Positions 1 to 64,000 of a stretch of 64,000 nt of DNA are shown here, piece by piece. Every line of letters starts with the position of its first letter. The first letter of the stretch is position 1. The stretch is taken from contig JAHDWK010000003.1 of assembly GCA_023382655.1 (NCBI GenBank), positions 372,001 through 436,000 on the forward strand. The letters are read 5' to 3'. Position numbers and translations under genes: made by a program. Source of the DNA: Anaerolineae bacterium (GTDB taxonomy: Bacteria > Chloroflexota > Anaerolineae > Promineifilales > Promineifilaceae). The notes below the pieces were generated by a model. The model did not search any database. It saw only the letters and a list, made by a program, of their open reading frames with translations, and was not told the origin of the DNA.

Positions 1-717
1 GCTTTCGGCCGTAATGTCAATGCGAAAAATCTCGCCCTGGCTGATGCGCGTGGGGGCACGCACATCTGTGACCCACGCTTCCACCAGGTCGCCCCCTGTT
101 TCGCGTGTTAAAGGCACAAAGCTGATTTCCACGCCGGCGTTGGCGGCCAGTTTGGCGGCCGCTTCGGTGTCGCCAATGGTGGCAATGCCATCACTGAGGA
201 TGACCAGGCGGCGACCGCTGCCTGCCGGAAAGAGGGCCAGTCCCAGGCGGATGGCCTCGGCCAGGTCGGTTTGCAGTGGTTGGGGGACGGAGGTGATGGG
301 GGCCAGTTCGGCCAGCCCGCTCATGGGGCGTTCCACGAGGGCGTTGCCACCAAAGAGGATGACGGCCGTCTGGTCATCTGGTTTCATGCTGGCCACGGCC
401 GTGCGTACAAACCCTTCCGCCTGTTCTGCCTGTTCCGGGCTGATGGAGTCAGAGGCATCCACCAGAAAGACGACGGCCAGGGTGTCATTGGCCTGTACAA
501 GCTGCGTTCCGGCTAATGCCAACACCAGCAGCAGCAGGATCAACAGCCGCAATCCCAGGCTGGCCCACTCTCGCCGCCGCCCCCGTACCCGGCTCTGCCC
601 GCCGCCACGCGGCCCGCCACGTGGCCCGCCACGCGGCCCGCCACGCGGCCAACCGACCCAGGCGATGAAGGGAATTGCCAGTAACAACAGGAGCGCGAGG
701 GGGGTGGTGAAGAACAT
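1..717 (-). CDS. VWA-domain membrane protein, BatA-like (C-terminus beyond window)
   Basis: Read on the minus strand from the ATG at 715-717 and open to the window edge, so 239 residues are seen and the C-terminus is missing. A first hydrophobic segment (about residues 4-18) is followed by a basic loop with four RGGP-type repeats, a second membrane segment (about 54-70) and then a von Willebrand factor A domain. The MIDAS-type motif DASDS and the later strand LVILSDG are visible. This arrangement of N-terminal membrane segments followed by a VWA domain resembles BatA/BatB or large VWA proteins of aerotolerance/MoxR-associated operons. Its partners would lie to the left, outside the window. 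Family placement is reasonably safe; function is inference. Confidence 0.82.
   Translation of the reverse strand, partial: MFFTTPLALLLLLAIPFIAWVGWPRGGPRGGPRGGPRGGGQSRVRGRRREWASLGLRLLILLLLVLALAGTQLVQANDTLAVVFLVDASDSISPEQAEQAEGFVRTAVASMKPDDQTAVILFGGNALVERPMSGLAELAPITSVPQPLQTDLAEAIRLGLALFPAGSGRRLVILSDGIATIGDTEAAAKLAANAGVEISFVPLTRETGGDLVEAWVTDVRAPTRISQGEIFRIDITAES
598..649. repeat. 12-bp GC-rich tandem repeat in coding sequence
   Basis: A roughly 12-bp unit (CGCCACGCGGCC with small variants) is repeated about four times. In the VWA gene it encodes the (RGGP)n basic loop between two membrane segments. Copy number may vary by slippage; nothing here shows that it does. Confidence 0.8.
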
Positions 718-720
718 AGT

Positions 721-797
721 AAGCAGTGAGCAGTGGGCAGTGTGCAGTAGGCAGTGGTATTAACTGCTCACTGCTTACCGCTTACTGCTCACTGATC
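721..797. repeat. Heptamer-built inverted repeat (CAGT family), copy 1
   Basis: The sequence parses without remainder into 7-bp words: five of the form NNGCAGT, one spacer word, then five of the complementary form ACYGMTY. The two halves can pair into a long imperfect hairpin. It lies between the VWA gene and the kinase gene, and the last words contain the kinase stop codon (TGA, complement of 789-791). A second copy is at 42698-42768. Confidence 0.85.
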
Positions 798-2975
798 TTC
801 ATAAACCAGCGGCAGGTAAATGGTAAAGGTACTGCCATTGCCGTATTTGCTTTCGGCGGTAATGTGGCCGCCGTGCGCTTTGATGATAAATTGGGCTAAC
901 GCCAGCCCCATGCCGGTGCGACGGCCGTTGCCGTTTATACCGGCCGGGTTGAAGCCATCCCATAGCGTTTGCAGCCGTTCGTCGGGGATGCCCACGCCGT
1001 TGTCCAGGATGCGCACGAAGGCGTTACTACCTTCGCTGCCACATTCCACCATCACCATGCCGCCAATTTTATTGAACTTGATGGCGTTGTGGAGCAGATG
1101 TTGGGTGGCTTCTAACAATTGGGGCGCATCACCCAGCGCGGTGGCGTAGCTGGCGTCGGCATGGAAATCAATTTTCACGCGGCGCGCTTCGGCCATGCTG
1201 TGCAGGTTGCGGATCGCTTCCTGGGTAATCTGATCCAGGTGAACCGGCTCAAACTTGAACTGGCTGCGCATCTGGATGCGGGCAGAAATGGTGATGAGGT
1301 TGTCAATGGGCGCGCGCAGGGCGGCAATTTGCTGGCTGATTTCGCTGACGATCTGCCCTTCTTTTTCACCTGCTTTACCCTGGTATTTTTGCATTTCGCG
1401 GTTGATGTCGGTAAACGGCCGTCGCAAATCCGGTGAGATCATCTCGATAAAGTCGGCGTACAGGTTCACCAGTTCTTGCAAGTGCTGCTTTTCGCGGGCC
1501 AGCGTCTGGTTTTGGCGAAAGACAAAATCGTTAATCTGGCGCAGACTGGCCAGATTGTACGCCTGGGCCAACAGCGGGCTGATCTGGGCCGCCCAGCCGT
1601 GCAGCAGTGCCAACTCTTCCTGGCTGTAGCCTTCGCCGGTGTATTTGGGACCCAACGCCAGTACGCCGATCAGCGTATCCCCGGCGTGCAGCGGCTGGTA
1701 AAGTACCCGCTGCCACCGGTTGAGCAGTTCGCGTTCCGCTTCGGGAATGTGGGCATACTGCTCGACGGTATCCAGGTCGGCATGGATGAGGGGAGTGTTA
1801 GTCTGGCGCAGGTGATGGCTGAAGGGGCTGTCTGGGTTGAAGTCGGCGGGCACGTAGGGGAGTTGTTCCAGGCTGGCTAACGGCCGTAATACCAGCCGAC
1901 CCCCTGGCCCATCATCCGCCTTAAACAACCAGACGTCATCTGTCGTCAGGTTCAACTGCACCAACCGCAGAAAAATCTGCCCTAGCTGCGCTGGTTCGGG
2001 CATGTTGCCGGCGATGTTGCTGAACTCGGCCAACACCACATCTCGTTTTTGCCGGCCGTGCAAGAAGATGCGGCGCGTAAACTCGTTCACCCAGCGGTAG
2101 ACCAGGGTGAAAAAGGCGGCAAAGAGGGCAGCGGCAATGGTAATAATGAGGGTTTGGGTGGAAACGGCCGTCGCCGCCGGTAAATTCGACACCGTTTGCA
2201 CAATGACCGACAGCGCCAGCCAGGTAAGGCCAAAGATGATGAGCGCCCCGGCCAGACGGCTGAGCGCCTGCCGCGAAGCCAGTTGCAGTTCCGGCAGATG
2301 GGGGCGGGTGAGGGTGAGCGTACCCACCAGAGCTGCCAGGATGATGACCAGAATGCCAAACTGCTGCCAGCCAGATTGCCCTACCTGTTGCACGGAGGCG
2401 AAGCCAAAACCGACCATGAATAGGGTAATGACCAGTAGCCAGTAGTTAACCTGGTTGCGGTAAATGGAGTGGGGCAGGTTTGTTTTCACCTGTTGCGTCA
2501 AAATCCAGGCGGCGAGGATGGGGATGAGCCAGGCGGTAATCCACACGGCCGTCCACAAGCCCCCCTGGGAAATCCGCTGCCCCCCGGCCACAAACAACGG
2601 CAGGTAAAAGCCCCAGATGGTGGGGTCCAGGGCGATGGCGGCGGCGATGAGCAGCAAACTGAGGAAGAGGGCGACACGGCCGTGCCCTTTGGGCAGGTTG
2701 AAGTAAACAACGGTAGTCAGGAGGAGGGTGACGGCCGTGAAATTCAGCGCATATGTACCCACCACCCCCCAGTTAAAAACCAGAATGTCTGGGAACGACA
2801 GGCCGCCAAAAAAACGCAGTACGCTGCTGGCCCACACCGCCGCCAGCAGCAGTGTCAGCGTCCAGCGCACATACAAACGCCGCCGCTTTAGCCGTACCCG
2901 CCACAAATAAATGATCATGGCGATAAAGCTGAGTGGCAGCAAAGCTATCAATAAAAACTGCAAGGTGAGCGTCAT
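789..2975 (-). CDS. Membrane sensor histidine-kinase-like protein lacking the H-box histidine
   Basis: 728 residues from the ATG at 2973-2975; an in-frame TTG 12 bases upstream is less likely. The N-terminal ~300 residues are a multi-pass membrane domain (about 9-10 hydrophobic segments). A GAF-like domain (about 310-470), a coiled-coil dimerisation region and a HATPase_c domain follow, with the N box LLHNAIKFN, the G1 box DNGVGIP and the G2 box GMGLALAQF. Where HisKA families have S-H-E-L-R-x-P, this protein has S-P-D-L-R-R-P, with proline at about residue 515 in place of the phospho-acceptor histidine. The ATPase boxes look intact. It may therefore be a pseudokinase or a regulator of another kinase. 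No response regulator is adjacent. The stop codon lies in a heptamer repeat. Confidence 0.85.
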   Translation of the reverse strand: MTLTLQFLLIALLPLSFIAMIIYLWRVRLKRRRLYVRWTLTLLLAAVWASSVLRFFGGLSFPDILVFNWGVVGTYALNFTAVTLLLTTVVYFNLPKGHGRVALFLSLLLIAAAIALDPTIWGFYLPLFVAGGQRISQGGLWTAVWITAWLIPILAAWILTQQVKTNLPHSIYRNQVNYWLLVITLFMVGFGFASVQQVGQSGWQQFGILVIILAALVGTLTLTRPHLPELQLASRQALSRLAGALIIFGLTWLALSVIVQTVSNLPAATAVSTQTLIITIAAALFAAFFTLVYRWVNEFTRRIFLHGRQKRDVVLAEFSNIAGNMPEPAQLGQIFLRLVQLNLTTDDVWLFKADDGPGGRLVLRPLASLEQLPYVPADFNPDSPFSHHLRQTNTPLIHADLDTVEQYAHIPEAERELLNRWQRVLYQPLHAGDTLIGVLALGPKYTGEGYSQEELALLHGWAAQISPLLAQAYNLASLRQINDFVFRQNQTLAREKQHLQELVNLYADFIEMISPDLRRPFTDINREMQKYQGKAGEKEGQIVSEISQQIAALRAPIDNLITISARIQMRSQFKFEPVHLDQITQEAIRNLHSMAEARRVKIDFHADASYATALGDAPQLLEATQHLLHNAIKFNKIGGMVMVECGSEGSNAFVRILDNGVGIPDERLQTLWDGFNPAGINGNGRRTGMGLALAQFIIKAHGGHITAESKYGNGSTFTIYLPLVYEDQ

Positions 2976-29844: not shown

Positions 29845-29845
29845 C

Positions 29846-29900
29846 GTTTGTAGTAGGCGATTTATCGCCTGCATACAGCGATAAATCGCTTACTACAAAC
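29846..29900. repeat. GTAGTAGGCG palindromic repeat, copy 3
   Basis: The left arm GTTTGTAGTAGGCGATTT then ATCGCCT pairs almost perfectly with the right arm at 29877-29900. It lies between the second ATPase gene and the binding-protein gene of one apparent operon. It could act as an mRNA-stability or attenuation hairpin. Confidence 0.88.
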
Positions 29901-29910
29901 TATCATATTT

Positions 29911-29990: not shown

Positions 29991-30012
29991 TCTCAAATGT
30001 GGAGGAGATTCA

Positions 30013-33501: not shown

Positions 33502-33519
33502 AGGTATAGAGGTGACGGA

Positions 33520-36968: not shown

Positions 36969-36972
36969 AACT

Positions 36973-38619
36973 CTAATCTGGGATGCGTACCGGCAGTTTA
37001 CCCTGAAACGGAATTTCGCCCCACAACGCCGCCGCCAGGGCGCGCATGGCCGGTTCCTGGATGCTGTAGGTGCAAATGTGGGTGCGGGCGCGGGGATAGG
37101 CGGCCAGGTCATAGGGGGTGCGCAGGGCGACGGTGATCAAGGGGACGACGGTGTCTAGCAGCACATTCACCAATGCTGCCTGTTCTGTTTGACGGGACGC
37201 GGCAATCGTGCCCACAATGACCAGATCATATTGCCCTGCCCGCTCGCGGAAGGTGCTGATGGTGGATTCATCCGGCTGCTGAGGGATCACATATTCATCC
37301 ACGCAGGGGTGATAACGACGCAGCGCCGTCCCCAAAGTCATCTTTTCTGAGGCGGAGGTGTCGGCCGGGGTGAGGTTTTGGAAGGTGGGTAGGATGAGGG
37401 CGATACGGCCGTCGGCGGGAATACGCAGCGGCAGCAATCCGGCCGCGTCACGCACCAATGTCACCGACCGGTTGGCTACTTCCTGCGCCAGCCGACGGTG
37501 TTCCTCGCAGCCAATCACCGTCAATTCCGGTTGGGTTTGCGCGGCCAGCCATTGCTTCAAGGCCAGGATGCGCTGGATGGAATCATTCACCTCAGCACGG
37601 TTGATCGCGCCGGTTTCTAACCCGTTGATCAGAGCATGGTAAGCAGTATCTTGGGCTGTGGGATCATCGGTCATCAACAGCATGTCCACACCAGCCTGCA
37701 CGGCGCGTAGGACATCGTCGGCCAATCCCGCCCCCTGATGGATGGCGGCCATATCCATGGCGTCACTGACAATGACACCCTGGAAAGCCAGCTTCTGGCG
37801 CAGCAGCCCTTGTATGATGGTAGGAGAAAGGGTGGCGGGTAGGACACGGCCGTTATGCAGCGCCGGCAATCCCACATGCGAAGTCATCACAATTTTGGCC
37901 CCGGCGGCAATGGCAGCGCGGAACGGCCGTAGCTCCACATCCCACAACCGCTTTTCGTCATGCACCACCACCGGGATGCCATGATGCGAATCGGAAACGG
38001 TATCCCCATGCCCCGGAAAATGTTTGGCCGCGCTGATGACCCCTGCCGCTTGAATCCCTTGCGCCATCGCCGCCGCCAGTTCGCCGACCAGTTGCGGCTT
38101 TTCGCCAAAGGAGCGCACGCCAATCACCGGGTTTTGCGGATTGCTGTTCACGTCACAGCTAGGCGCATAATTGACATTCACGCCCAGCGCCGCACATTCG
38201 CGCCCCAATGCCAGCCCCACCCGAAAAGCCAGGTCTGGGTCGGCAACGGCGCCCAGCGCCATATTGCCCGGAAATGCCGTCAAAGCCGGGCCAAGCGCAT
38301 TGAGCTGCCCACCTTCCTGGTCAGCACCAATGAGCAATGGTGGATACCCGGCCGCCTGTGCCGCTTGCTGTAAAGTTGTCGTCAACTGCCGCACCTGGCA
38401 GGGATTTTCCACATTCCGGTAACGAAAGAGGGTAAAGCCGCCCAACGGCCGTGAAGCCAACCAGCGCAAAATGGGCGGTGGTGGTTCCGTGCCCACAAAT
38501 CCCAACAGCAATTTATGGCCCACATTTACAGTTGTGTTGGTTACGATAATTTTTCTGTCCTCAATCATATTCGTTACAAAATTGTCCGTTGTGGCTGCTT
38601 TATCCCAGATTGCAATCAT
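36973..38619 (-). CDS. Family-3 glycoside hydrolase, beta-N-acetylhexosaminidase (NagZ-like)
   Basis: 548 residues, ATG with GGGAG ten bases upstream and no signal peptide, hence cytoplasmic. The (beta/alpha)8 domain has the bacterial NagZ signature [18 protein letters not shown], containing the Asp-His acid/base pair, and the nucleophile aspartate in [13 protein letters not shown] second alpha/beta domain of ~200 residues follows, as in two-domain Bacillus NagZ. It would cleave GlcNAc from imported chito-oligosaccharides or from muropeptides. It directly precedes nagA in the same transcript. Confidence 0.92.
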
Positions 38620-38670
38620 ATCATTCTTTCTCCCGCTACAAATAAACCATGATTCCTAAAAGGGATGGCC

Positions 38671-38705
38671 GCACCCCTGCCTTAGACAGTCTGGGGCAGG
38701 GGTGC
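38671..38705 (-). terminator. Strong hairpin between the chitinase and GH3 genes
   Basis: GCACCCCTGCC (38671-38681) pairs with GGCAGGGGTGC (38695-38705). It lies 42 bases past the chitinase stop on the minus strand and may terminate or attenuate, letting the secreted chitinase be expressed more strongly than the intracellular genes. Confidence 0.65.
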
Positions 38706-38746
38706 GGGTTGGGTTAGATACTTCTACCGTTACGAAGGTTTATTTA

Positions 38747-40564: not shown

Positions 40565-40717
40565 GTGAACCTCCTCTACGGGTGATGCTTACTTCAACCC
40601 GCGGCTATGCTGCTCCGTACACGAACAAAATTTGCCATCTATCAATTGTCAATGTGTTGGATTGCTTTCAGTTCATTTCCATTGGCGGCTCCTTTGGCGC
40701 AACATAACGACACCGCG

Positions 40718-41863
40718 CTAAATGACGCCCAACTGCTGCTTCAATACCAGGGCTGACGCGCCCATCAACACGACATCATCCCCCAATGTGGTATAACTGA
40801 TTTGGGTACCGGCGGCCATAGCGGGCAACACACGTTGGTTCACGGCCGTGTGTAACCCCGCCATAAAGGGAGCACCCGCTCTGGACATTTGCCCGGCAAT
40901 CACAATTTGCCGCGTGTTGAGGATGCCAATGAGATGGGCAACGGCCGTGCCCATGTGCGCCCCCGCCTGATGCAAAACCGCCTGGGCCACACTGTCACCC
41001 TGTTGGGCTGCCGTCAGCACCTCTTCCCAGGTGGGGGCAGGTTGGCCTGTCTGGGTTGCCATTTGTTGCAAAATGCCACGAATACTGGCCACTGTTTCCA
41101 GGCAGCCCCGATTTCCACAACTGCACAATTCGCCATTTTCCACCACCGTCACATGCCCAATCTCACCCGCGCCAAAACCGTCCCCCACAAAAAGCTGACC
41201 GTTCAGTACAATGCCCGCACCAATACCCCGCCCGGCCTTGATCAACACCAGATTGTCCGTGTCGTGGGGATCAAAGGAGTAGGAAGCCAGCGCGGCCACG
41301 TGGCTGTCATTGCCCACGTACACCGGCAGGCCATACTGCTCTTCTAGCAACGAGCGTAGCGGTAAGTCGTGCCAGCCCAGGTTCACCGCATCCAGCACAA
41401 TGCCACAGGCCCCGTCCACCAGACCGGGGGTGCCGATGCCAATGCCTAAAATGGGGGTGGTAGTTTGGGCCAGCAGTTGGCTAATCAGGTCATGGACTAA
41501 AGCGAGGGCGGCGGCGGCGGTACGGCCGTCTACGGCCACATCCACCCGCTGCGACATCTCCCCCCGCAAATTAATCAGCGCCCCTCGGAAATAACTGGCA
41601 CTCAAATCCAGACAGAGCAACTGTCGCGCATCCTCTGCCAGCCGCAGCAGGCGCGGCGGTTTGCCGCCAATCGAGGGGCCAAGCCCTGTTTCCAGCACCA
41701 ACCCTTCGTTCATGAGATCGGCCACAATGCTGGAAACGGTGGTGCGCGTCAGGTTCGTCTCACGGGCAATATCCGCCCGGCTGATATCCTGCTGCTCATA
41801 GATCATCCTCAAAATCAGGCGGGAGTTATGTTGTTTAGTGAGTTGGTGGGTGGCTTTTTGCAT
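40718..41863 (-). CDS. ROK-family transcriptional repressor (NagC/XylR-like)
   Basis: 381 residues from the ATG at 41861-41863; an ATG five codons upstream is possible. The N-terminal winged helix (about 10-65) has ISRADIARETNLTRTTVSSI as recognition region. The ROK domain has LDLSASYFRGALI, GIGIGTPGLVD and the zinc-type CSCGNRGCLE. Members bind phosphorylated or free sugars; next to chitinase and nagA this suggests a GlcNAc- or GlcNAc-6-P-responsive repressor. Its own promoter has a palindrome at the expected transcription start, fitting autorepression. Confidence 0.92.
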   Translation of the reverse strand: MQKATHQLTKQHNSRLILRMIYEQQDISRADIARETNLTRTTVSSIVADLMNEGLVLETGLGPSIGGKPPRLLRLAEDARQLLCLDLSASYFRGALINLRGEMSQRVDVAVDGRTAAAALALVHDLISQLLAQTTTPILGIGIGTPGLVDGACGIVLDAVNLGWHDLPLRSLLEEQYGLPVYVGNDSHVAALASYSFDPHDTDNLVLIKAGRGIGAGIVLNGQLFVGDGFGAGEIGHVTVVENGELCSCGNRGCLETVASIRGILQQMATQTGQPAPTWEEVLTAAQQGDSVAQAVLHQAGAHMGTAVAHLIGILNTRQIVIAGQMSRAGAPFMAGLHTAVNQRVLPAMAAGTQISYTTLGDDVVLMGASALVLKQQLGVI

Positions 41864-41886
41864 GATTGCCCATGTCATCCATCTTT

Positions 41887-41905
41887 GTAAGTCAAATAAA
41901 CTTAC
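41887..41905. promoter_or_regulatory. Putative ROK-repressor operator
   Basis: GTAAGT-CAAATAA-ACTTAC, a perfect 6-bp inverted repeat with AT-rich 7-bp centre, lies just downstream of the promoter's -10 box and 23 bases before the repressor start codon. NagC/Mlc-type operators have a similar AT-rich dyad. No second exact copy was found in the window. Confidence 0.5.
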
Positions 41906-41910
41906 TAAGA

Positions 41911-41939
41911 AGTGTAACAGGCAGCATAACGCGTGTCAA
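41911..41939 (-). promoter_or_regulatory. Promoter of the ROK repressor gene
   Basis: On the minus strand TTGACA (41934-41939), 17 bases, TACACT (41911-41916). It sits in the short gap after the ROK kinase gene and directly upstream of the palindrome at 41887-41905. Confidence 0.72.
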
Positions 41940-41943
41940 TTGC

Positions 41944-42684
41944 TCATTCCGCCACGGCCGTAACCGCCGCCCCCACGATCCCTGCCTCATTGCGCAGTTC
42001 AGCCGGTACCAGTTTGGCCCGCGTCTGGATATAGGGAAAGAACTTGTCGTGTTTTTTGCTCACGCCGCCACCAATAATGATCAATTCCGGCGAAAAGAGA
42101 AACTCAATGTGCTGAAAATAGATGTTGAGCCGTTCACCCCACGCTTGCCATTTCAATTTTTTCTCCGTGCGGATACGGTCAGAAGCGTACCCCTCGGCGT
42201 CCACCTTCATGCTGCGCAGGTAGAGATGCCCCAGTTCCATGTTGGGTACCAGACGGCCGTCTACAAACATTGCCGATCCTATGCCTGTGCCCAATGTAAA
42301 CATCATCACCACGCCCGACTGGTTGTGTCCTGCGCCAAAATGGTGTTCGGCTACGGCCGCTACGTCGGCGTCGTTGTGGACGACGGCCGTACAACCCATC
42401 TCCCGTGCAATGGCTGCCTGCGCGTCAAAACCAATCCACCCCTTGTCTATATTGGCCGCGCTGTACAACACACCGTGAATGGCAATACCCGGAATCCCCA
42501 CGCCCATCGGTCCCCGGTAGTTCAGCGCCTCCGTAATCTGGCGAATGACCTGAATACATGCCTCCGGTGTAGATGGGTTGGGCGTATCCATACGGAGGCG
42601 TTCGCTGACCAGTTCGCCCGTCTCTGTGTCCACCAGCGCCCCCTTAATGCCTGACCCGCCAATGTCTATGCCCAGTGCAATCAT
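41944..42684 (-). CDS. ppgK: ROK-family sugar kinase, polyphosphate glucokinase type
   Basis: 246 residues, shorter than ATP-dependent ROK kinases and without the CxCGxxGCxE zinc motif. The N-terminus [20 protein letters not shown], then [20 protein letters not shown] and the C-terminal [32 protein letters not shown] agree with polyphosphate/ATP-glucokinases of Actinobacteria and Chloroflexi. Reaction: glucose plus polyphosphate to glucose-6-phosphate. Next to a GlcNAc pathway that otherwise lacks a kinase, activity on GlcNAc is conceivable but not shown. The repressor gene follows after its own promoter. Confidence 0.85.
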
Positions 42685-42697
42685 AGTGCCCTCTTGT

Positions 42698-42768
42698 TAG
42701 TGAGCAGTGAACAGTGAGCAGTACAGTAATAGCAGCCTGCTCATTGCTTACTGCTCACTGCTTACTGA
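42698..42768. repeat. Heptamer-built inverted repeat (CAGT family), copy 2
   Basis: Words such as TAGTGAG, CAGTGAA, CAGTGAG, CAGTACA, then ATTGCTT, ACTGCTC, ACTGCTT form an imperfect hairpin between the patatin and kinase genes. It provides the patatin stop codon (GTCAGTAAGCAGTGA). Confidence 0.82.
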
Positions 42769-43588
42769 CAACTTCCTCCAACAAATGCTCCACCTGCCAC
42801 ACGGCCGTGCGCCCTGCCGAGACCCCTTCTTGCCAGCGATGAAAATCAAACAGCCCAATGGTGCCAATCTCTGGCCGCAGCAGTAAATCGGGTGGCTCTT
42901 TAGCCAGGTGCATCTCCATCGTTTGCGCCGTGATCACATCCAGCGTAGCCGCCAGCACCCACCATAGTTCATTGCGCTGCACCAGTTCAGCCGCTTTGGT
43001 CAGTGGCCCGGTACGGCCGTAGCGCCGCTGCATCGGTTCATACGGGGCTGTGTTGGTCAGGTCTACCGCCAGCACATAATCCGCCCCCAACTGCCGGGCC
43101 ACATTAAACGGGGTGTTATTTTTCACGCCGCCATCCACCAGGATCATGTCATCCAATTCCACCGGTGGTAGAGCGACGGGGATGGCAATGGTGGCGAGTA
43201 CGGCCGTGACCACATCCCCGGTCTGCAAAATCACCTCCTGGCGGGATACCAGATCGGTAGCCACTACCGCCAGCGGCAGTTTGAGGTCAGCAAAGGTCGG
43301 CCGGCCGATGGTTTTTTCCAGCCTTTTTTCCACGCGCCGGTTGCTCACCAGCGCCGGAATACGCAGGTCGGCCGGGCGGTACAGTTGTTCCAGATTAAAT
43401 TGTTGGAAAAAGTCCATCATATCTTCGGCCGCCAGCCCGGCTGCCAGCAGCGCCCCCAGCAAACCGCCAATGCTGGTGCCCACCACCAGGTCAGGCTGTA
43501 CGCCCAGGCGCGCCAATTCCAGCAACACACCAATATGCGCCGCACCTCTGGCCCCACCCCCGCCGAGTACCAAACCAAGTTTCGTCAT
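42755..43588 (-). CDS. Patatin-like phospholipase (RssA/YchK-like)
   Basis: 277 residues. Oxyanion loop GLVLGGGGARGAAH, serine nucleophile in VVGTSIGGLLG and catalytic aspartate in LVDGGVKNNTPF form the Ser-Asp dyad of patatin acyl hydrolases. There is no signal peptide. It would hydrolyse phospholipid or other acyl esters at the membrane. The C-terminal SKQ and stop codon come from the CAGT heptamer element; the region upstream of the start codon is the GTAATC heptamer element at 43590-43673, which leaves no visible SD. Its link to GlcNAc metabolism is only positional. Confidence 0.93.
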   Translation of the reverse strand: MTKLGLVLGGGGARGAAHIGVLLELARLGVQPDLVVGTSIGGLLGALLAAGLAAEDMMDFFQQFNLEQLYRPADLRIPALVSNRRVEKRLEKTIGRPTFADLKLPLAVVATDLVSRQEVILQTGDVVTAVLATIAIPVALPPVELDDMILVDGGVKNNTPFNVARQLGADYVLAVDLTNTAPYEPMQRRYGRTGPLTKAAELVQRNELWWVLAATLDVITAQTMEMHLAKEPPDLLLRPEIGTIGLFDFHRWQEGVSAGRTAVWQVEHLLEEVVSKQ

Positions 43589-43589
43589 T

Positions 43590-43673
43590 CGTAATCTGAA
43601 GTTCGTAATCCGAAGTTCTTAATCCGTAATCCGACTTCGGACATCGGCTTACGGGTCACGGCTTACGGGTTAC
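43590..43673. repeat. Heptamer-built inverted repeat (GTAATC family), copy 1
   Basis: Twelve 7-bp words (CGTAATC, TGAAGTT, CGTAATC, CGAAGTT, CTTAATC, CGTAATC, CGACTTC, GGACATC, GGCTTAC, GGGTCAC, GGCTTAC, GGGTTAC) in continuous register between the thymidine phosphorylase and patatin genes. Confidence 0.88.
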
Positions 43674-43682
43674 AGGCTATGC

Positions 43683-44987
43683 TCAAGAAATAGTCCCGTA
43701 GAAATGGGGCAACGGCCGTACCGTTTCCCCCGTCCACTGAATCGCTGTCAATAATTCTTGCCGTGCCTGGGCCAGTTTGGTGGCGTCATTGGCATGGATT
43801 TCGCCCATCGTTTCACCGGCGGCGAAGTGGTCGCCCACTTTGGCGCGCAGGATGAAGCCAACCGCGTGGTCAATCTGGTCGCTTTTCACCAACCGGCCAC
43901 CGCCCAGATGTACCGCCGCCCAACCGACCGCCGCCGTATCAATGGTGGCAATTGTGCCTGTTTGGGGCGCATGAATCGGTTCAACCAGTTGTGCCTGGGG
44001 CAATAAATCGGGGTTGTCTACCTGACGGCCGTCGCCCCCCTGCGCCGTCACCATATCGCGGAACTTTTGTAGGGCACGGCCGTCATTTCTCACCTCTGTC
44101 ACCATTGTTTTGGCTGCATCCAGGTCAGATGCTTTCCCCGCCAGCAGCAGCATGTGGGCGGCCACTTCCCGGCAGTGCGCCCAAAAGTCGGCCGGGCCAC
44201 CCCCTTGCAGCGTAGCAATCGCCTCTTTCACCTCCAGGGCATTGCCAATGGCGTGGCCGAGCGGCTGGTTCATGTCGGAAATGAGGGCCACCGTTTTGCG
44301 CCCGGCGTCCGCGCCAATATCCACCATGATCCGTGCCAGTTCACGGGCGCTTTCCACAGTGGGCATAAACGCGCCGCTGCCCGTTTTCACATCCAGCAAA
44401 ATGGCGTCTGCGCCGGCCGCCAGCTTTTTAGACATGATGGAAGCGGCGATGAGCGGTGTACTGGCGACCGTGCCGGTGACATCACGCAGGGCATAGAGTT
44501 TACCATCGGCGGGGGCGAGTACGGCCGTTTGCCCGGCCAACACCAGCCCAATCTCCGCCAACTGCCGTTTGAACTGCGCCAACGGCATAGCTGAGGACCA
44601 GCCGGTGAAAGACTCCATCTTGTCCAGCGTGCCACCGCTAGAACCCAGGCCGCGCCCGCTCATCTTGCCCACGGGCACGCCACAAGCGGCCACCAACGGC
44701 TGCACCACCAGCGTGGTCTTGTCGCCCACGCCGCCGGAGGAATGTTTGTCTACCACAAAGGGGGCCACATCGTGCAGGTCTAGCTGGTCGCCAGAGCGGG
44801 CTATCGCCAGCGTCAGGTCAACCGTTTCGCGGCGGCTCATGCCGCGCAGGAAAATGGCCATGAGCAGCGCCGCCGTCTGGTAATCGGGGATGCGCTCGGC
44901 CGTCAGCTCGTGGATAAACCAGGTGATCTCGTCGGTGGTCAGGTCACGGCCGTCGCGTTTCTTTTCGATAATGTCTACCATGCGCAT
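43683..44987 (-). CDS. deoA: Pyrimidine-nucleoside/thymidine phosphorylase
   Basis: 434 residues from the ATG at 44985-44987, eight bases after GAGGA; the longer frame is not used. The phosphate- and nucleoside-binding signature KHSSGGVGDKTTLVVQPL is followed by GKMSGRGLGSSGGTLDKMES. The C-terminal domain has the biotinyl-like hammerhead (DHAVGFILRAKVGDHF). It converts thymidine or uridine plus phosphate to base and (deoxy)ribose-1-phosphate in salvage. No other nucleoside genes are adjacent apart from the amidohydrolase 1.2 kb to the right, on the other strand. Confidence 0.95.
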   Translation of the reverse strand: MRMVDIIEKKRDGRDLTTDEITWFIHELTAERIPDYQTAALLMAIFLRGMSRRETVDLTLAIARSGDQLDLHDVAPFVVDKHSSGGVGDKTTLVVQPLVAACGVPVGKMSGRGLGSSGGTLDKMESFTGWSSAMPLAQFKRQLAEIGLVLAGQTAVLAPADGKLYALRDVTGTVASTPLIAASIMSKKLAAGADAILLDVKTGSGAFMPTVESARELARIMVDIGADAGRKTVALISDMNQPLGHAIGNALEVKEAIATLQGGGPADFWAHCREVAAHMLLLAGKASDLDAAKTMVTEVRNDGRALQKFRDMVTAQGGDGRQVDNPDLLPQAQLVEPIHAPQTGTIATIDTAAVGWAAVHLGGGRLVKSDQIDHAVGFILRAKVGDHFAAGETMGEIHANDATKLAQARQELLTAIQWTGETVRPLPHFYGTIS

Positions 44988-45134
44988 AGTGGGAATCCTC
45001 TTGCCCGTAGTGCCAGGCACACCGTAAACTGTCTGGGGCAGCCAAAGCCTTCAACGGTGTTCCTGGCGCTACTCAACCCAGGTTTCCCGATTATAACAGG
45101 ATTCCGCTATAATCCAGACGAAAGGAGATGCCCC

Positions 45135-45671
45135 ATGTCAGCGCAAATTGAAATTAAACTGAGTAGCATAGAAGAGATGTTTGTCGAACCCGCCGCCGAT
45201 CCCTTTGATCCGGACAGTCGTTATCTTTCTGGTATTGATGAGGTTGTCGGGCAATTGCGCCTGAAACGGCGGGAGTTGAATGAGAAGACACGATTAGTCA
45301 TTCGGCTGCCGCAAACGGCCGTGACCCCCAACACCGCCGCTACCCTCAAAGCCGCCCTCGACCGGTATGGCGCTGCCCAGATTGACCTAAACCAGCAAGC
45401 CATTGAAGAACTGCGCGTCGGCAGCCGTCGTCAAGCCATTAGTGCGTTAGTGATTGCGGTCGTTTTGATTCTACTGACCATCTTTCTCTTGGCTGCCATT
45501 CCAGCCTTGCAGGATTTTAGTGGGGCATTGGCCGGATTTGTGGGTATTGCCGTGTGGGTCATCTTTTGGGACCCCATTTACAACTATGTCTACGCCTGGC
45601 GGCCCAACCGCCTGGACATTAAAGTGTTCGAGAACCTCCGCCAGGCCGATCTGATAGTGGAAGGTATGTAG
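45135..45671 (+). CDS. Unrecognised protein with two C-terminal membrane segments
   Basis: 178 residues, ATG preceded by AAAGGAG. A charged soluble N-terminal part (about 1-95; IEIKLSSIEEMFVEPAADPF) is followed by two hydrophobic segments (about 103-121 and 127-147) and a short cytoplasmic tail. I do not recognise a named family; proteins of this layout are conserved hypotheticals in Chloroflexota, from general memory only. The stop codon overlaps the SD (tAGGAG) of the next gene, so the pair is translationally coupled to a flavin/F420 oxidoreductase. Confidence 0.7.
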   Translation: MSAQIEIKLSSIEEMFVEPAADPFDPDSRYLSGIDEVVGQLRLKRRELNEKTRLVIRLPQTAVTPNTAATLKAALDRYGAAQIDLNQQAIEELRVGSRRQAISALVIAVVLILLTIFLLAAIPALQDFSGALAGFVGIAVWVIFWDPIYNYVYAWRPNRLDIKVFENLRQADLIVEGM

Positions 45672-45682
45672 GAGCGACCCTT

Positions 45683-46135
45683 GTGGTGGCCCAACATCGG
45701 GAATATTCGATGCAAAAAATGACAACCGATGAGGCGCGTACTTTTTTGTCACATGGTACGCGCACGGGGAAATTGGCGACGGTGCAGGCCGACGGCCGTC
45801 CCCACGTTGTCCCTGTCTGGTTTTTGCTGGAGGGCGACGAGCTGGTTTTCACCACCTGGCACCAATCGGCCAAAGCAGCCCATTTGCAGCGCGACGGCCG
45901 TATCGCCCTCTGTGTAGATAATGAAAATCCGCCCTATGACTTTGTGCTGGTGGAAGGCACAGCGACCATCAGTGAAGATTTAGATGATCTGCTGCTCTGG
46001 GCTACCAAAATTGCCGCGCGTTATATGGGCGAGGCACAGGCGGAGACATACGGCCGTCGCAATGGCGTACCCGGTGAATGGCTGGTTCGCGCCAAAATCA
46101 CCCATATCGTCGGCCAGAAAGAGGTGGCACTTTGA
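45683..46135 (+). CDS. PPOX-class (split-barrel) F420/FMN-dependent oxidoreductase
   Basis: 150 residues from a GTG at 45683, chosen because AGGAG lies exactly eight bases upstream; an ATG at 45710 has no SD. The pyridoxamine-phosphate-oxidase-like split barrel is shown by GTRTGKLATVQADGRPHVVPVWF, RIALCVDNENPPYDFVLVEG and the late GVPGEWLVRAKITHIV. Members reduce or oxidise small molecules with F420 or FMN. Coupled to the membrane protein upstream. A GTGATGC heptamer hairpin separates it from the next gene. Confidence 0.88.
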   Translation: MVAQHREYSMQKMTTDEARTFLSHGTRTGKLATVQADGRPHVVPVWFLLEGDELVFTTWHQSAKAAHLQRDGRIALCVDNENPPYDFVLVEGTATISEDLDDLLLWATKIAARYMGEAQAETYGRRNGVPGEWLVRAKITHIVGQKEVAL

Positions 46136-56314: not shown

Positions 56315-57148
56315 CTATGATTTCAAGTGGGAAAGGATGAGGGTGGCTACTGGTAACGGCCGTTCCATCATCAACATGTGCCCCACCTCCGCCACTTCGA
56401 CAAAAGTGGCTTCGGGCTGAATCTGCTGCCACCGTGCCCATGCTTCCGGGTGCAGCGTATCAGTCTCCGCCGCCCGCACCGCCAGCGTTGGCTGCGTTAC
56501 CTGCGGCAGATACTCCCATACCAAACCACCATGCCCCATCATTTGCCCATACAAATGCTCCTCCCATTCACGGGGGAAACGCAGGGTGAACAGGCCATCT
56601 CCGTTAAGGGCAAAGCTTTCGTTGACATAATCCCACAGAACTTCGTCAGAAAAGCGGGCAAAAACTGGCTTCTGCCGATAATGGAGAAACGCTGTCTGTA
56701 AATCCGGCCACTGATACCGCCGGTTGCGCGCCGCTGCCAACAGCGGAAACTCCTTCACGCCACCGGGTATTTGGGCAATTGCCGCCAGCATAGGGGGCAT
56801 CATGAACACGGGATCAATCAGTACCAATTGGCGAAACAAATCGGGGCGCTTCGCTGCCGCCACAGTGGTCACGACCGCTCCCAACGAGTGGCCCAGGCCG
56901 ATCACCTGGCGCAAACCCTGCTGGTCAAAGAAGTAAATCAAATCATCGGCCAGCGCCTGCCAATCTGGTAAGGATTCCGGTTGAGCCTGGGGCCACAACG
57001 GCCGTTGCTCCATCGCCAACACCCTGTACCTCTCCGTAAACGGAGCCAAAAACTGCCGAAAACAGGCAGGTGTGTAGGCGTTCGGATGAGCAAAATGCAG
57101 TACCTCGCCATGTCCGCCCAGTTCGATGTAAGGGATGCTGTCGGTCAA
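56315..57148 (-). CDS. Alpha/beta-fold hydrolase
   Basis: 277 residues from a TTG (57146-57148) chosen because AGGAG lies six bases upstream; a TTG nine codons earlier lacks a site. The fold is shown by the beta-strand HFAHPNAYTPACFRQFL, nucleophile elbow GLGHSLGAVVT, the aspartate in AETDTLHPE and histidine in GHMLMMERP. It is a soluble esterase- or haloperoxidase-like enzyme of unknown substrate. It is the gene downstream of PBP2 on the same strand, with a 54-base gap, and may be the tail of the mre transcript. Confidence 0.88.
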   Translation of the reverse strand: MTDSIPYIELGGHGEVLHFAHPNAYTPACFRQFLAPFTERYRVLAMEQRPLWPQAQPESLPDWQALADDLIYFFDQQGLRQVIGLGHSLGAVVTTVAAAKRPDLFRQLVLIDPVFMMPPMLAAIAQIPGGVKEFPLLAAARNRRYQWPDLQTAFLHYRQKPVFARFSDEVLWDYVNESFALNGDGLFTLRFPREWEEHLYGQMMGHGGLVWEYLPQVTQPTLAVRAAETDTLHPEAWARWQQIQPEATFVEVAEVGHMLMMERPLPVATLILSHLKS

Positions 57149-57202
57149 ATGATTCTCCTGATGTGTAGTCCACAATTCGTGGGCCGATAGTCCGCGGTGG
57201 CC

Positions 57203-59677
57203 CTATGGCGCCAGTTGGTCAAAGATAGATTGTTCATTTTGCGGCAGTATCGTACCCTCTGTTTTTGCGCGCTCCAGAAAGCCCGGCGGGATATCGGGGT
57301 TAAAGGTGAGGGAGGGGCAGGTTCTCACCACCGGTGGCGCCGTCTCGCCCTCCGCTAACTCCGGCGTTGGGGCATATTGACCGACTTTAAGGTATGCCGC
57401 CATGATGTTACAGGCAGCCGGCGCCGCCCATTGCGACCCCTCACCGCCATGATACAAAAAGACTGCGACCACAATCTCTGGATCGTCAGCCGGCGCATAC
57501 CCCACATACCAGGAATGGGTAGGTAATACACGCCGCTGGATAATGTCATCATAGCTGCACCAACCCTTCTCAATGGCAATGTTATCGCAGAATTCGGCTG
57601 TACCTGTCTTGCCCGCCGTGGGTATGCCCAGGTTGTCCAGCCACTCGGTATAGGTAGAGCCAGTGTAGAACTCCTCCGGGCTGACATAAGTGTTCACCAA
57701 TTGCATAGCGTCGGCAATAATCTGAATATAATCGCGATCTACATCCAGAGCGTTTAAGACCACGGGCTGGTAGATGGGTTGCCCGTTTTCATCAAACCGA
57801 ATGTTGATAGAAGGATCGTCCAATGGATTTCCGTCTGCGTCTGTAAGAATCGTCTCTCCGTTTGGCCCCGGATGCGCGCGGGCCACGATCTGGCTATTGG
57901 CGTCTGTGATCACCACATTGCCATTCTCATCCGTCATGTGGTGAATAATAGTAGGTTTGTATAGGAAACCGCCGTTAGCGATAACCGCCGCCATTTGGGC
58001 TACTTGCATGGGTGATGCCGTCATAAAACCCTGCCCAATGCCCAGGTTGTAATCGTCACCGGTTGACCAGGGTTCGCCGTAGAAACGGGCTTTCCAGCCC
58101 CGGTCTGGTGGCAGATTCCCGTCTGCTTCTAATGGCAGTTCCAACCCCTGCACCCGGCCAAAACCAAACTGTGCCCCATATTTGGCCACGCCTTCCACCC
58201 CCAGACCTTCCACAAATTCACCGTCCTGGTTAAAGCCGCCGGTGATTTTGTAGAAGTAAATGTCACAAGAGTTGGCCATACCGGTGGTGACGTTCATGTA
58301 GCCATGTTCAGCGGTGGGGGTGTTTAGTACCCAGCAGACAAATGTTTGGGCACGACCAGGGTCATTGGGTGCATACCGGTTGGGGATGGTGATCTGGCCT
58401 GGCGCTCGTAACAGACGGCTGGGGGAAATCAGCCCTTCTTGTAAGGCGCCGGCCGCGGGCACAATCTTAAACGTGGAGCCAGGGGGGTATTCACTGCTGA
58501 TGGCGTGGTTGACCAGAGGGGTGTATTCGTTACGAGCCAACCCCAGGTAATACTCCACAGGTACTTCTGTTTGAAACCGGTTGTTGTCAAAGGTGGGGAA
58601 GCTAACCAATGCCAGAATTTCGCCTGTTTTGGGGTTCATGGCTACGGCCGCTGCCTGCCGCACTTCTACAAACGACTCCTCACCGGTAATCGGATCGCGC
58701 GAAAGCACAGCTTCACGCTCTTCCATGACCTGCCGGATAATCTCGGTCGCCATAATTTGCAGATCCAGGTCTAGTGTCAGGTGCATATTTAACCCGGCTT
58801 GTGACTCCTGCGCTAACCCAATCTGGCGCACTTCACGTCCGGTCCAGTCCACCTCAATGGTACGCACCCCTTTTTGCCCGGACAATTCCAATTCCATTGA
58901 CGATTCCAACCCGGCCCAACCGACCCGGTCGTCTCGTTGATAACCCAACACTTGAATCCAGTTTTCGTTAGGTATTGGCCCCATATATCCTAAAATATGG
59001 GCCGTATATTCACCGGAGGGGTAGTAACGCAAAGGTTCAGGGATAACACGGACACCGGGCAGAAAGATGCTTTCCTGCTCAACTCTGTAAGCCAGTGTAA
59101 TGGGTACGTTGGCGGTGATAACGGCAGGAATGTATTGGGCAAAACTATTTTCGATCACAATGCCTTGAATGCTGTTGGGTAGTTGTTTAACGACGCCGGC
59201 ATTGTCCAATGTTTCCTGGGCAGATGTGCCAAAGACACCGGCAAGACGGGTGTAGGTCTGCACCAAGGCGGGATCGGCTTCGGCGACAAGTTCCTGCTGT
59301 TGGATAGTATTGGTAACAGGTACGCCCGTGAGTAGTGAGAGACGTTCATAGACGGCCTGGCGCTCTGCTGCCGTATCTGGCAAAAAAGCTGGCGTAATGG
59401 TGACATTAAAACTGGGCAGGTTTTCGGCCAGAGCCTGACCATTACGGTCAAAAACCACGCCACGAGGGGCTTTGGTGCGTAAGGTGGCAAATTGGTTTTC
59501 CTGGGCTAAGGTGGTGAGTTCACCGCCCCGTGTTTGCTGAATGTGATAGACGCGGTAGAGCAGTAGGCCAAAGATGATGACGATGAGGATGCGAAAGAAA
59601 TATAAACGGCCGCGTAAGCCAATATCTTCTGTAGATGATTCCCGGTCTTCGGGACGATCCCAACCAATGCGTGACAT
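57203..59677 (-). CDS. mrdA: Penicillin-binding protein 2 (elongasome transpeptidase)
   Basis: 824 residues, longer than the usual ~620-700 because of insertions in the transpeptidase domain. The N-terminal membrane anchor (about 26-45) is followed by the PBP dimer domain and the transpeptidase with STFK (catalytic serine, in PPGSTFKIV), SCD (in ANSCDIYFY) and KTGT (in GKTGTAEF). It cross-links peptidoglycan during side-wall growth together with MreBCD, encoded just upstream. The ~2.5-kb gene lacks ACGGCCGT altogether. ATG with GGAG seven bases upstream. Confidence 0.95.
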   Translation of the reverse strand: MSRIGWDRPEDRESSTEDIGLRGRLYFFRILIVIIFGLLLYRVYHIQQTRGGELTTLAQENQFATLRTKAPRGVVFDRNGQALAENLPSFNVTITPAFLPDTAAERQAVYERLSLLTGVPVTNTIQQQELVAEADPALVQTYTRLAGVFGTSAQETLDNAGVVKQLPNSIQGIVIENSFAQYIPAVITANVPITLAYRVEQESIFLPGVRVIPEPLRYYPSGEYTAHILGYMGPIPNENWIQVLGYQRDDRVGWAGLESSMELELSGQKGVRTIEVDWTGREVRQIGLAQESQAGLNMHLTLDLDLQIMATEIIRQVMEEREAVLSRDPITGEESFVEVRQAAAVAMNPKTGEILALVSFPTFDNNRFQTEVPVEYYLGLARNEYTPLVNHAISSEYPPGSTFKIVPAAGALQEGLISPSRLLRAPGQITIPNRYAPNDPGRAQTFVCWVLNTPTAEHGYMNVTTGMANSCDIYFYKITGGFNQDGEFVEGLGVEGVAKYGAQFGFGRVQGLELPLEADGNLPPDRGWKARFYGEPWSTGDDYNLGIGQGFMTASPMQVAQMAAVIANGGFLYKPTIIHHMTDENGNVVITDANSQIVARAHPGPNGETILTDADGNPLDDPSINIRFDENGQPIYQPVVLNALDVDRDYIQIIADAMQLVNTYVSPEEFYTGSTYTEWLDNLGIPTAGKTGTAEFCDNIAIEKGWCSYDDIIQRRVLPTHSWYVGYAPADDPEIVVAVFLYHGGEGSQWAAPAACNIMAAYLKVGQYAPTPELAEGETAPPVVRTCPSLTFNPDIPPGFLERAKTEGTILPQNEQSIFDQLAP

Positions 59678-59688
59678 AGTAACTCCGT

Positions 59689-60189
59689 TCAGAACTCAAG
59701 GTTGCGGGGATGGAAAAGGCGGTCAATGCCATAGAGCAACCAATAAATGGGCAACATGGCCGCGGCATTGAGCAAGATGAGCGGCCATAAGCTGGTAACT
59801 ACTTGAAAAGTGGAAATGAAGCCCAATAATCGTAAAAATAAGAGATTGACAATCAGGTAAATGCTGGTTGCCAGGGCAGCCAGCAACATGGGCATGATGA
59901 TGTGGCCTGGGGGAAAGGCTTGTTGTAGCCAAACCACGGCCGTAACCGCCGCCATGTATGCCAAAGCTGTTAATCCGATAGGCGTAATGGAGAACAAATC
60001 CATGCACATACCGCCAATAAACGCCCAAATCATGCCTTCATCCAACCCGCGCTGCAATCCCCAGGCCAACGCTACCAGTAGCGGCAATTGAGGTGACAGG
60101 CGGAAAAAGGAGAAATGGGGTAACACGGCCGTTTGCAGCAAACTCAGCGCCAGCATGACCGGAATTGCCACATAAATAGATACTTTCAT
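59689..60189 (-). CDS. mreD: Rod-shape-determining protein MreD
   Basis: 166 residues with five hydrophobic segments, including the conserved FFRLSPQLPLLVALAWGLQR and GMIWAFIGGMCMDLFS, the latter typical of MreD. Membrane scaffold of the elongasome. Start codon two bases after the mreC stop, so translation is coupled; PBP2 starts 11 bases later. Confidence 0.93.
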   Translation of the reverse strand: MKVSIYVAIPVMLALSLLQTAVLPHFSFFRLSPQLPLLVALAWGLQRGLDEGMIWAFIGGMCMDLFSITPIGLTALAYMAAVTAVVWLQQAFPPGHIIMPMLLAALATSIYLIVNLLFLRLLGFISTFQVVTSLWPLILLNAAAMLPIYWLLYGIDRLFHPRNLEF

Positions 60190-63375: not shown

Positions 63376-63419
63376 TCGGTAATCCGAAGTCGGATTACGG
63401 GCTTCGGATCACGGACTAC
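63364..63419. repeat. Heptamer-built inverted repeat (GTAATC family), copy 2
   Basis: Eight words: CGTAATC, CGTAATC, GGTAATC, CGAAGTC, GGATTAC, GGGCTTC, GGATCAC, GGACTAC. They form a hairpin between convergent genes, supply the stop of the PfpI gene and end four bases before the end of the sugar transferase gene. Confidence 0.88.
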
Positions 63420-63422
63420 GTC

Positions 63423-64000
63423 TCAATACGCGCCTTTGCCAAACAGAGCATGGGGAATGGTTTGCAGCAAAATGCGGAAGTCCAACCCCAATGACCAGTT
63501 TTCAATGTAATAAATATCTAGCAGGCACAATTCATCAAACGTCAGGTCGGAACGACCGCTCACCTGCCACAGCCCTGTAATCCCCCCAATCACCGATAGT
63601 CGTTGGCGGTGCCACGTTTTATAGTCATCCACTTCTTCCGGCAGCGGGGGACGTGGCCCCACCAGACTCATCTGCCCACGCAGCACATTGTAAAGCTGCG
63701 GCAGTTCATCCAGGCTGGTACGACGGATAAATTTGCCCACCCGCGTCAGCCGGGGATCGTCCTTTATTTTGAACAGCGGACCATCGGCCTGATTAAAGGC
63801 CAACAATGCCTCTTTTTGTTCTTCTGCGCCTACCACCATCGAGCGAAATTTGAACATTTGAAACGGCCGTCCATCTTTGCCAATACGCATCCCGGCATAC
63901 AGCACCGGGCCGGGTGAATCGAATTTGATAGCCAGGGCAATCGCGGCCGTCACCAGCAACGTGGGCATAGATAGCAGCAAAATAATGCTCAGGTCCATCA
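63423..64000 (-). CDS. Polyprenyl-phosphate sugar-phosphate transferase, WbaP/EpsL family (N-terminus outside window)
   Basis: At least 191 residues are visible and the frame stays open at the window edge, so the N-terminus is missing. The bacterial sugar transferase domain is complete enough to recognise: GPVLYAGMRIGKDGRPFQMFKFRSM, DDPRLTRVGKFIRRTSLDELPQL, and GPRPPLPEEVDDY with SVIGGITGLWQVSGRS. It attaches the first sugar-1-phosphate to undecaprenyl phosphate for exopolysaccharide or glycan synthesis. Further polysaccharide genes probably lie to the right. Confidence 0.93.
   Translation of the reverse strand, partial: MDLSIILLLSMPTLLVTAAIALAIKFDSPGPVLYAGMRIGKDGRPFQMFKFRSMVVGAEEQKEALLAFNQADGPLFKIKDDPRLTRVGKFIRRTSLDELPQLYNVLRGQMSLVGPRPPLPEEVDDYKTWHRQRLSVIGGITGLWQVSGRSDLTFDELCLLDIYYIENWSLGLDFRILLQTIPHALFGKGAY

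What the first reader, a model, noticed from the sequence alone, without database searches (positions are those of the whole stretch)
1..64000. ACGGCCGT is a highly iterated palindrome, about one per 500 bp
By eye I count about 125 copies of the octamer palindrome ACGGCCGT in 64 kb; an unbiased sequence would hold about one. It is in genes and gaps, on both coding strands and in all frames (giving Thr-Ala-Val, Gly-Arg or Arg-Pro). The near neighbours ACGGCCGC and TCGGCCGT are much rarer. The density resembles HIP1 (GCGATCGC) of cyanobacteria. It could mark a methylation, repair, recombination or segregation site, or strand-exchange bias; the core CGGCCG is also a common restriction target.
Basis: partly seen in the sequence, partly recalled or inferred. 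Interest (0 to 1): 0.8.

Follow-up and report, generated by a model that had tools for sequence, protein, structure and literature searches.

The report
Genome-wide palindrome with flank dialects
An eight-letter DNA palindrome, ACGGCCGT, recurs about every 500 letters through the genomes of many members of one family of Chloroflexota bacteria; nearly all of the copies compared stay unchanged between sister species while the DNA around them drifts, and some related genera use versions with other end letters; it is probably the docking site of a still unidentified DNA-reading protein.

Summary
In detail: 125 copies of ACGGCCGT in 64 kb (about 1.4 expected), 14,867 in the 7.70-Mb genome against 185 of the reversed control. 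The genome is an unnamed Anaerolineae (Chloroflexota) assembly. The array is HIP-type, like cyanobacterial HIP1 but with another sequence in another phylum: 23 of 34 other family genomes carry over 2,900 copies; none of 397 sampled phylum genomes outside the family exceeds 471. New: (1) copies are conserved as intact 8-bp units, 137 of 150 comparisons at 82-84% DNA identity against about 28% for ordinary octamers, with synonymous codons inside them nearly frozen; (2) flank dialects: a constant CGGCCG core flanked A..T, T..A or G..C in different genera, other genera being core-only or without it; (3) some predicted viral contigs carry the A..T form at host density or above. The best candidate writer found, a solitary DUF1156-like methyltransferase, is associated with the array inside the order but is neither always present nor sufficient; several methylase families were not searched. 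Likely mechanism (inferred): a two-fold-symmetric protein reads the whole octamer, and repair or selection coupled to that reading maintains each site.

The parts
362..63870. Array of 125 copies of ACGGCCGT; first copy 362-369, last 63863-63870; full coordinates
362..402 (.). Example of two neighbouring copies (362-369, 395-402)
36880..36898 (.). Closest pair of copies (36880-36887 and 36891-36898)
   Evidence: gap 11
36000..46000 (.). Stretch used to find syntenic DNA in five congeneric species; the conservation counts come from the whole window wherever it aligned (about 16-22 kb per species)
29799..33966 (.). Longest copy-free stretch (gap 4,176), over a solute-binding-protein gene and permease genes: ordinary chromosomal genes
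57006..59935 (.). Second longest copy-free stretch, over a penicillin-binding-protein gene and the end of an MreD-like gene

Best explanation
ACGGCCGT forms a HIP-type array, about one copy per 518 bases through this Anaerolineae genome, whose copies are conserved as whole 8-bp palindromes; it likely works as the recognition site of a two-fold-symmetric (dimeric) DNA-reading protein, probably a solitary DNA methyltransferase whose reading would be coupled to DNA repair that restores or favours intact sites. Shown: genome-wide excess; both flanks needed together; an 8-bp conservation footprint with synonymous positions nearly frozen; flank dialects on a constant CGGCCG core in related genera; host-like density of the A..T form in some predicted viral contigs. 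Inferred: a dimeric reader (from the dyad symmetry and coupled flanks); that its flank specificity diverged between genera; that maintenance is by recognition-coupled repair or by weak selection at each site, not by mutation bias alone. Untested: that the sites are methylated, and that the DUF1156-like enzyme at G000:C10:161120-163093 is the writer.
For: Counts and controls: (915 in 464 kb, 11 expected from a masked second-order model). Coupled flanks: A..T 1,830 against 28-84 for every other flank pair; the same for T..A in G012 and G..C in G019, and no dominant pair in the core-only sets tabulated. Conservation: 137 of 150 comparisons intact in four congeners, 29 of 45 in a fifth; footprint of 8 bp; codons inside sites identical in 266 of 271 comparisons, 173 expected from the same codons elsewhere. 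In the own genome the cores GCGGCCGC and CCGGCCGG are at about 0.7 of expectation and one-sided matches at only 1.2-4.1 times, and non-array CGGCCG is only weakly conserved (0.32-0.50 in four congeners, 0.14 in the fifth, 20-22 sites each), so the full octamer is what is kept. Methyltransferase: in the order, found in 29 of 35 genomes whose CGGCCG count exceeds that of GCCGGC and in 1 of 4 others; no restriction gene among six neighbours scanned; the own genome has no PF00145 hit and its one D12 protein is Dam family. Precedent: Elhai 2015, PMC4390886 (abstract, sections 7, 12, 19, part 1 of 2 of section 18, and passages).
Against: G010 (94% complete) has CGGCCG at 7 times first-order and 3.9 times second-order expectation and no hit for this enzyme, PF00145, PF01555 or PF02086; G022 and G030 also lack this enzyme. 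Homologues at 45-57% identity elsewhere show no CGGCCG excess: 21 of 79 loci, each with at least 5 expected copies, have O/E 0.6-1.4. The own genome holds a second, larger DUF1156-like methylase, and other methylase families were not searched, so the choice of enzyme is open. Its specificity is unknown, and its DPPY motif is more usual in adenine methylases (recalled). The 29/35 against 1/4 contrast ignores shared ancestry. No repair partner was identified or searched for.
Confidence: 0.4

Rival explanations
1. The octamer is a palindromic DNA-uptake or recombination self-signal: DNA carrying the host dialect is preferentially taken up or recombined, and this drive keeps sites intact.
For: Dialects with a constant core parallel the Neisseriaceae uptake-sequence dialects (PMC3630211, abstract and passages). 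Some predicted viral contigs carry the A..T form at up to 3.7/kb. Site permanence and lack of regular spacing. Weak dyad arms beyond the octamer.
Against: Known uptake sequences are not palindromes (PMC1939737, passages). Competence genes were not searched.
Confidence: 0.22
2. Docking sites of a nucleoid-organising, segregation or Chi-like recombination protein, each copy weakly beneficial.
For: Fairly even density along 400 kb (25-58 copies per 20 kb), both coding and intergenic; extended dyad GGnnACGGCCGTnnCC. Chi motifs also differ between lineages (recalled; PMC8022716 seen only in a search listing).
Against: Chi is asymmetric and read in one orientation (recalled), while this is a perfect palindrome; gaps between copies are not regular (CV 1.11); no candidate protein identified.
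Confidence: 0.25
3. A mutational or biased-repair by-product with no function for individual sites.
For: Some predicted mobile DNA carries it too; within the phylum sample it is confined to one family.
Against: A creation bias alone predicts turnover, but synonymous changes inside sites are about 20-fold fewer than the same codons outside predict (5 against 98 in 271), with an 8-bp edge; only a bias that also restores broken sites would fit.
Confidence: 0.1
4. Codon, amino-acid or composition artefact.
For: Phase bias 54/40/16 and gaps that are multiples of three in 341 of 789: amino-acid context limits where copies can lie.
Against: Intergenic copies at 1.59/kb; octamers of the same dinucleotide make-up are rare (29 and 21 copies in 464 kb for the two that could be tabulated, from 58 and 42 both-strand counts); relatives of similar GC lack it.
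Confidence: 0.01

Closest known systems
HIP1 (GCGATCGC) and alternate HIPs of cyanobacteria (Elhai 2015, PMC4390886)
   Same: GC-rich perfect octamer palindrome, hexamer core plus flanks, about 0.5-2.5 per kb, single-base variants concentrated at the first and last positions, some genomes with an alternate palindrome instead, occasional longer extensions
   Different: Other sequence and phylum; most alternates here keep the core and swap a self-complementary flank pair; core-only lineages exist; no constant cognate methyltransferase was found; in the parts of that paper read, no site-by-site conservation between species is reported
DNA uptake sequence dialects of Neisseriaceae (PMC3630211, abstract and passages)
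   Same: One constant core, lineage-specific dialects, thousands of copies per genome
   Different: Those are not palindromes and have a known receptor and a tested uptake function; none is known here
Chi sites
   Same: Over-represented short motif that varies between lineages (recalled)
   Different: Chi is asymmetric and oriented (recalled); this is an orientation-free palindrome and denser
GGCC methylation by M.Ssp6803II in Synechocystis (PMC6560206, passages)
   Same: Frequent GC-rich palindromic site of a methyltransferase linked to replication and repair
   Different: In the passages seen the site is called frequent, not over-represented. An Anabaena GGCC enzyme is placed in Pfam D12, but the own genome's only D12 protein is Dam family

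Membership tests
HIP-type array (HIP1 and alternates) | Palindromic GC-rich octamer far above expectation, of the order of 1 per kb | tested here: met
HIP-type array (HIP1 and alternates) | Genome-wide, in genes and gaps | tested here: met
HIP-type array (HIP1 and alternates) | Single-base deviations biased to the first and last positions | tested here: met
   212 of 325 one-mismatch copies lie at the two ends (about 39% expected from the model)
HIP-type array (HIP1 and alternates) | Some relatives replace it by an alternate palindrome | tested here: met
   TCGGCCGA in G012, GCGGCCGC in G019, TGCCGGCA in G016
HIP-type array (HIP1 and alternates) | A methyltransferase able to methylate the sequence is present | tested here: inconclusive
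   specificity unknown, not all methylase families searched
HIP1 proper | Sequence GCGATCGC in cyanobacteria | tested here: not met
   0 copies of GCGATCGC in the window; relatives are Anaerolineae
DNA uptake sequence | Non-palindromic 9-12-mer | tested here: not met
   perfect palindrome
DNA uptake sequence | Constant core with lineage dialects | tested here: met
DNA uptake sequence | Preferential uptake or binding by a receptor | not testable with these tools
   needs transformation or binding assays; competence genes were not searched
Chi | Asymmetric, strand-oriented motif | tested here: not met
   perfect palindrome, so it has no orientation
Restriction-modification target | Avoidance of the site in the host genome | tested here: not met
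   strong excess

The most novel reading that the evidence does not exclude
ACGGCCGT and its dialects TCGGCCGA and GCGGCCGC are an orientation-free genomic address code: one homodimeric reader family with a fixed CGGCCG core and evolving flank specificity decides which DNA is treated as self in repair, recombination or uptake, freezes about 15,000 sites per genome, and has been copied by mobile elements that carry the host's dialect.
Probability: 0.25. Interest if true: 0.9.

Novelty: new variant of a known kind. Interest (0 to 1): 0.68.

Why it matters
The function of HIP1 in cyanobacteria is, to my knowledge, still open. The near-complete freezing of synonymous positions in the copies compared suggests that selection or site-restoring repair acts on single copies among the roughly 15,000 of the genome, which argues against the view that such palindromes are mere by-products of a one-way mutation bias.

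Tried and rejected
m5C methyltransferase as writer: no PF00145 hit in the own genome; hits in 6 of 17 genomes tested. Of 11 loci from G030, G022 and G017 put into the script, 8 proteins were recovered, and no orthologue common to the three genomes showed among those 8, so a shared one among the other 3 is not excluded.

D12 methyltransferase as a GGCC-type writer: Elhai 2015 notes a GGCC enzyme in that Pfam family, but the three proteins tested, own one included, are Dam family, and the family also occurs in G014, G016, G026 and G032, which lack the array.

Foreign-island explanation of copy-free stretches: in the window they cover transport and cell-wall genes; of 10 proteins scanned in ten copy-free stretches of contig C1, 6 have ordinary domains, 3 have none, and 1 is a GmrSD-type restriction protein.

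Following sites in place across genera: the methyltransferase gene in 22 sequences and rpoB in 12 genomes share only a few positions and do not decide whether flanks switch in place. The rpoB tree is poorly resolved; the A..T group needs one change with support 68/86. In the methyltransferase tree the classes are clustered (7 changes against 17.1 shuffled), but A..T needs 3 changes.

Regular spacing: CV 1.11; no clear 9.5-11.5-bp periodicity in successive gaps under 400.

T..A-dense viral contigs: none at host-like density over more than 5 kb among 80 loci held.

Correction made on checking: the core excess of G028 is only 1.4 times under a second-order model, so it is the weakest of the core-only genomes.

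Literature (held open-licence PMC library only): ACGGCCGT as a word, one unrelated paper; highly iterated palindrome with Chloroflexi, none; CGGCCG with methylation motif, none; Anaerolineae with over-represented palindromes, none; Promineofilum with palindrome, one Rubisco review. One metaepigenome paper reports motifs GANTC, TTAA and GCWGC for three Chloroflexi bins (PMC6329791, passages). A 2018 study on selection and periodicity of HIP1 is recalled and was not seen.
Full report
Observation. The window holds 125 copies of ACGGCCGT, exactly as counted by eye; dinucleotide shuffles give 1.38 on average and never more than 5. It is the commonest 8-mer of the window, and the next palindromic octamer has 5 copies. 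The whole genome (G000, 7,696,474 bases, 64 contigs) has 14,867 copies, one per 518 bases, against 185 of the reversed, equally palindromic control TGCCGGCA. Over 464 kb of this genome (the window plus the first 400 kb of contig C1) there are 915 copies where a second-order model built with the motif masked expects 11. Density is similar in coding and intergenic DNA (2.01 and 1.59 per kb; 910 of 915 copies could be assigned) and along 400 kb (25-58 per 20 kb). Gaps are roughly random (CV 1.11).

Whose genome. The assembly is unnamed. Other loci with the A..T array or an enriched core bear labels such as Chloroflexi, Anaerolineae, Ardenticatenales or Promineifilum. So it is class Anaerolineae, phylum Chloroflexota; a Promineifilum-like family is my inference.

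Distribution. In 59 genomes (own and 58 relatives), 23 of the 34 other family members have 2,982 or more copies; the other 11 have 14 to 1,727. Outside the family the largest of 24 is 287. In a phylum-wide draw of 400 genomes (3 of them from the family, own included) the largest of the 397 outside is 471.

Dialects. Samples of 6 to 64 kb per genome (G038 gave no readable bases and ended the script; G031, G034 and G037 have 6 kb and G009 8 kb) and flank tables show one constant core, CGGCCG, and different flanks. Most genera of the family sampled use A..T. G012 uses T..A (64 copies in 52 kb, 2.7 expected), as does locus L162, an Anaerolineae MAG (30 in 22 kb). G019 uses G..C (63 in 56 kb, 2.1 expected). 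G008, G010, G022, G025, G028, G030, G035, G036 and G037 have an excess of the core with little flank preference: 2.1, 3.9, 6.8, 2.7, 1.4, 7.1, 3.4, 2.0 and 3.0 times second-order expectation; G028 is thus weak, G037 rests on 6 kb, and G030 leans to A..T (23 copies in 51 kb, 0.7 expected). G014, G016, G026 and G032 have none (0.8, 0.2, 0.7, 0.7); G016 instead has TGCCGGCA (50 in 49 kb, 2.2 expected; 3,665 in its genome). By whole-genome counts CGGCCG exceeds GCCGGC in 35 of 39 genomes of the order and in 1 of 20 outside it; GCCGGC may itself be avoided or enriched in some, so this ratio is a rough yardstick.

Whole-octamer reading. In the own genome the pair A..T has 1,830 counts (both strands) while every other flank pair has 28-84; one-sided matches are at 1.2-4.1 times model expectation and the pairs G..C and C..G at about 0.7. 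G012 and G019 show the same coupling for their own pair (128 and 126, all others 8 or fewer); in the core-only sets tabulated no pair dominates, the most uneven being C..G with 78 in G035 and G036 together. One-mismatch copies concentrate at the two ends (212 of 325). Weaker dyad arms extend the site: GGnnACGGCCGTnnCC in the own genome, also in intergenic copies (G at -4 0.58, at -3 0.46, against about 0.28 by base composition), AAACGGCCGTTT in nine other A..T genomes, TTCGGCCGAA in G012, CGCGGCCGCG in G019. The two arms are not coupled to each other.

Conservation. Syntenic DNA of five congeners was aligned to the window (hits under 300 bases or overlapping better ones were dropped, and copies in gapped columns were not counted, so 36-45 of 125 copies enter per species). 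At 82-84% identity, 36 of 40, 33 of 36, 33 of 36 and 35 of 38 copies are intact, against 26-31% for other octamers; at 76% identity 29 of 45 against 13%. Only 2 octamers (1 in the fifth species) of the same dinucleotide make-up aligned, too few to serve as a control, so the codon test is the main one. The footprint is the octamer itself: 0.93-0.99 identity per position in four congeners, 0.78-0.88 outside with background 0.83. Codons lying wholly inside copies with the amino acid conserved are identical in 66/67, 66/67, 65/67 and 69/70 cases, where the same codons elsewhere predict 42-45, and in 70/79 where 39.6 is predicted. The species share the same window copies, so these comparisons are not independent. 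The G and C of the weak arms are slightly better kept than other letters there in the four congeners, not in the fifth.

Candidate writer. The own genome has no PF00145 hit. PF01555 finds one weak match, a 658-aa protein with motif I, zinc-ribbon-like cysteines and a late DPPY motif; its nearest named models are DUF1156-type and other type II methylases, well below the NCBIfam cut-off; the label COG1743 is recalled. It lies between LysM-protein and dus genes. The one D12 protein is Dam family. A second, 946-aa DUF1156-like methylase lies beside Snf2- and DUF499-like reading frames (those names are my reading of the sequences) and remains an alternative. Other methylase families were not searched. 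In the order the 658-aa orthologue is found, whole or as contig-end fragments, in 29 of 35 genomes with CGGCCG above GCCGGC and in 1 of 4 others, there a contig-end fragment. Not found among the 35: G007 and G038 (78-79% complete), G010, G017, G022 and G030; G010 also gives no PF00145, PF01555 or PF02086 hit. Homologues elsewhere come without CGGCCG excess (21 of 79 loci). The enzyme is a candidate, neither necessary nor sufficient on this evidence.

Mobile DNA. The longest dense ones have 49 copies in 13.2 kb, 47 in 13.2 kb and 44 in 14.7 kb, with almost no T..A or G..C. The contig of L283 and L329 encodes ParA-like, anti-repressor, lysis-like and integrase matches; L315 and L269 have few or weak phage matches, so some may be plasmids or host DNA.

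Interpretation. Dyad symmetry, coupled flanks and an 8-bp edge point to a protein that contacts the whole palindrome as a dimer (inference). The near-freezing of synonymous positions speaks against a one-way creation bias and leaves weak selection on each site or repair that restores sites. The HIP1 model of methylation-directed repair (PMC4390886) is the nearest worked-out mechanism, and I keep it as the leading but unproven version; uptake or recombination signalling and nucleoid docking stay open. Methylation, competence genes and repair genes were not tested.

Noticed in passing
window 42699-42759 and about 43604-43674: Intergenic repeat of about 70 bp (the first copy is a hairpin with 23-nt arms, 87% complementary) with many dispersed matches in the own genome and its congeners.
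   Followed up: partly
G016 (same family): Alternate palindrome TGCCGGCA, 3,665 copies in a 62%-complete genome, in place of the CGGCCG array.
   Followed up: partly
G019 and G022: GCCGGC is almost absent (51 and 132 copies) while CGGCCG has 13,814 and 21,019: possible restriction avoidance.
   Followed up: no
L406:820-14027: A 946-aa DUF1156-like methylase beside Snf2-like and DUF499-like reading frames, resembling a known anti-phage island; names read from the sequence.
   Followed up: no
L283, L329, L315, L269: Predicted viral loci with 2.8-3.7 copies of ACGGCCGT per kb, denser than the own genome; L283 and L329 are one contig.
   Followed up: partly
G047 (same class, another family): The only genome of 20 outside the order with more CGGCCG than GCCGGC (3,142 against 1,678); in a 20-kb sample CGGCCG is at 0.9 of second-order expectation, so GCCGGC is low rather than CGGCCG high.
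   Followed up: yes
L126 (MAG labelled Acidobacteria J050): Close homologue of the candidate methyltransferase (57%) with TGGCCA, not CGGCCG, over-represented in the 12.8 kb held (15 copies, O/E 4.0).
   Followed up: no
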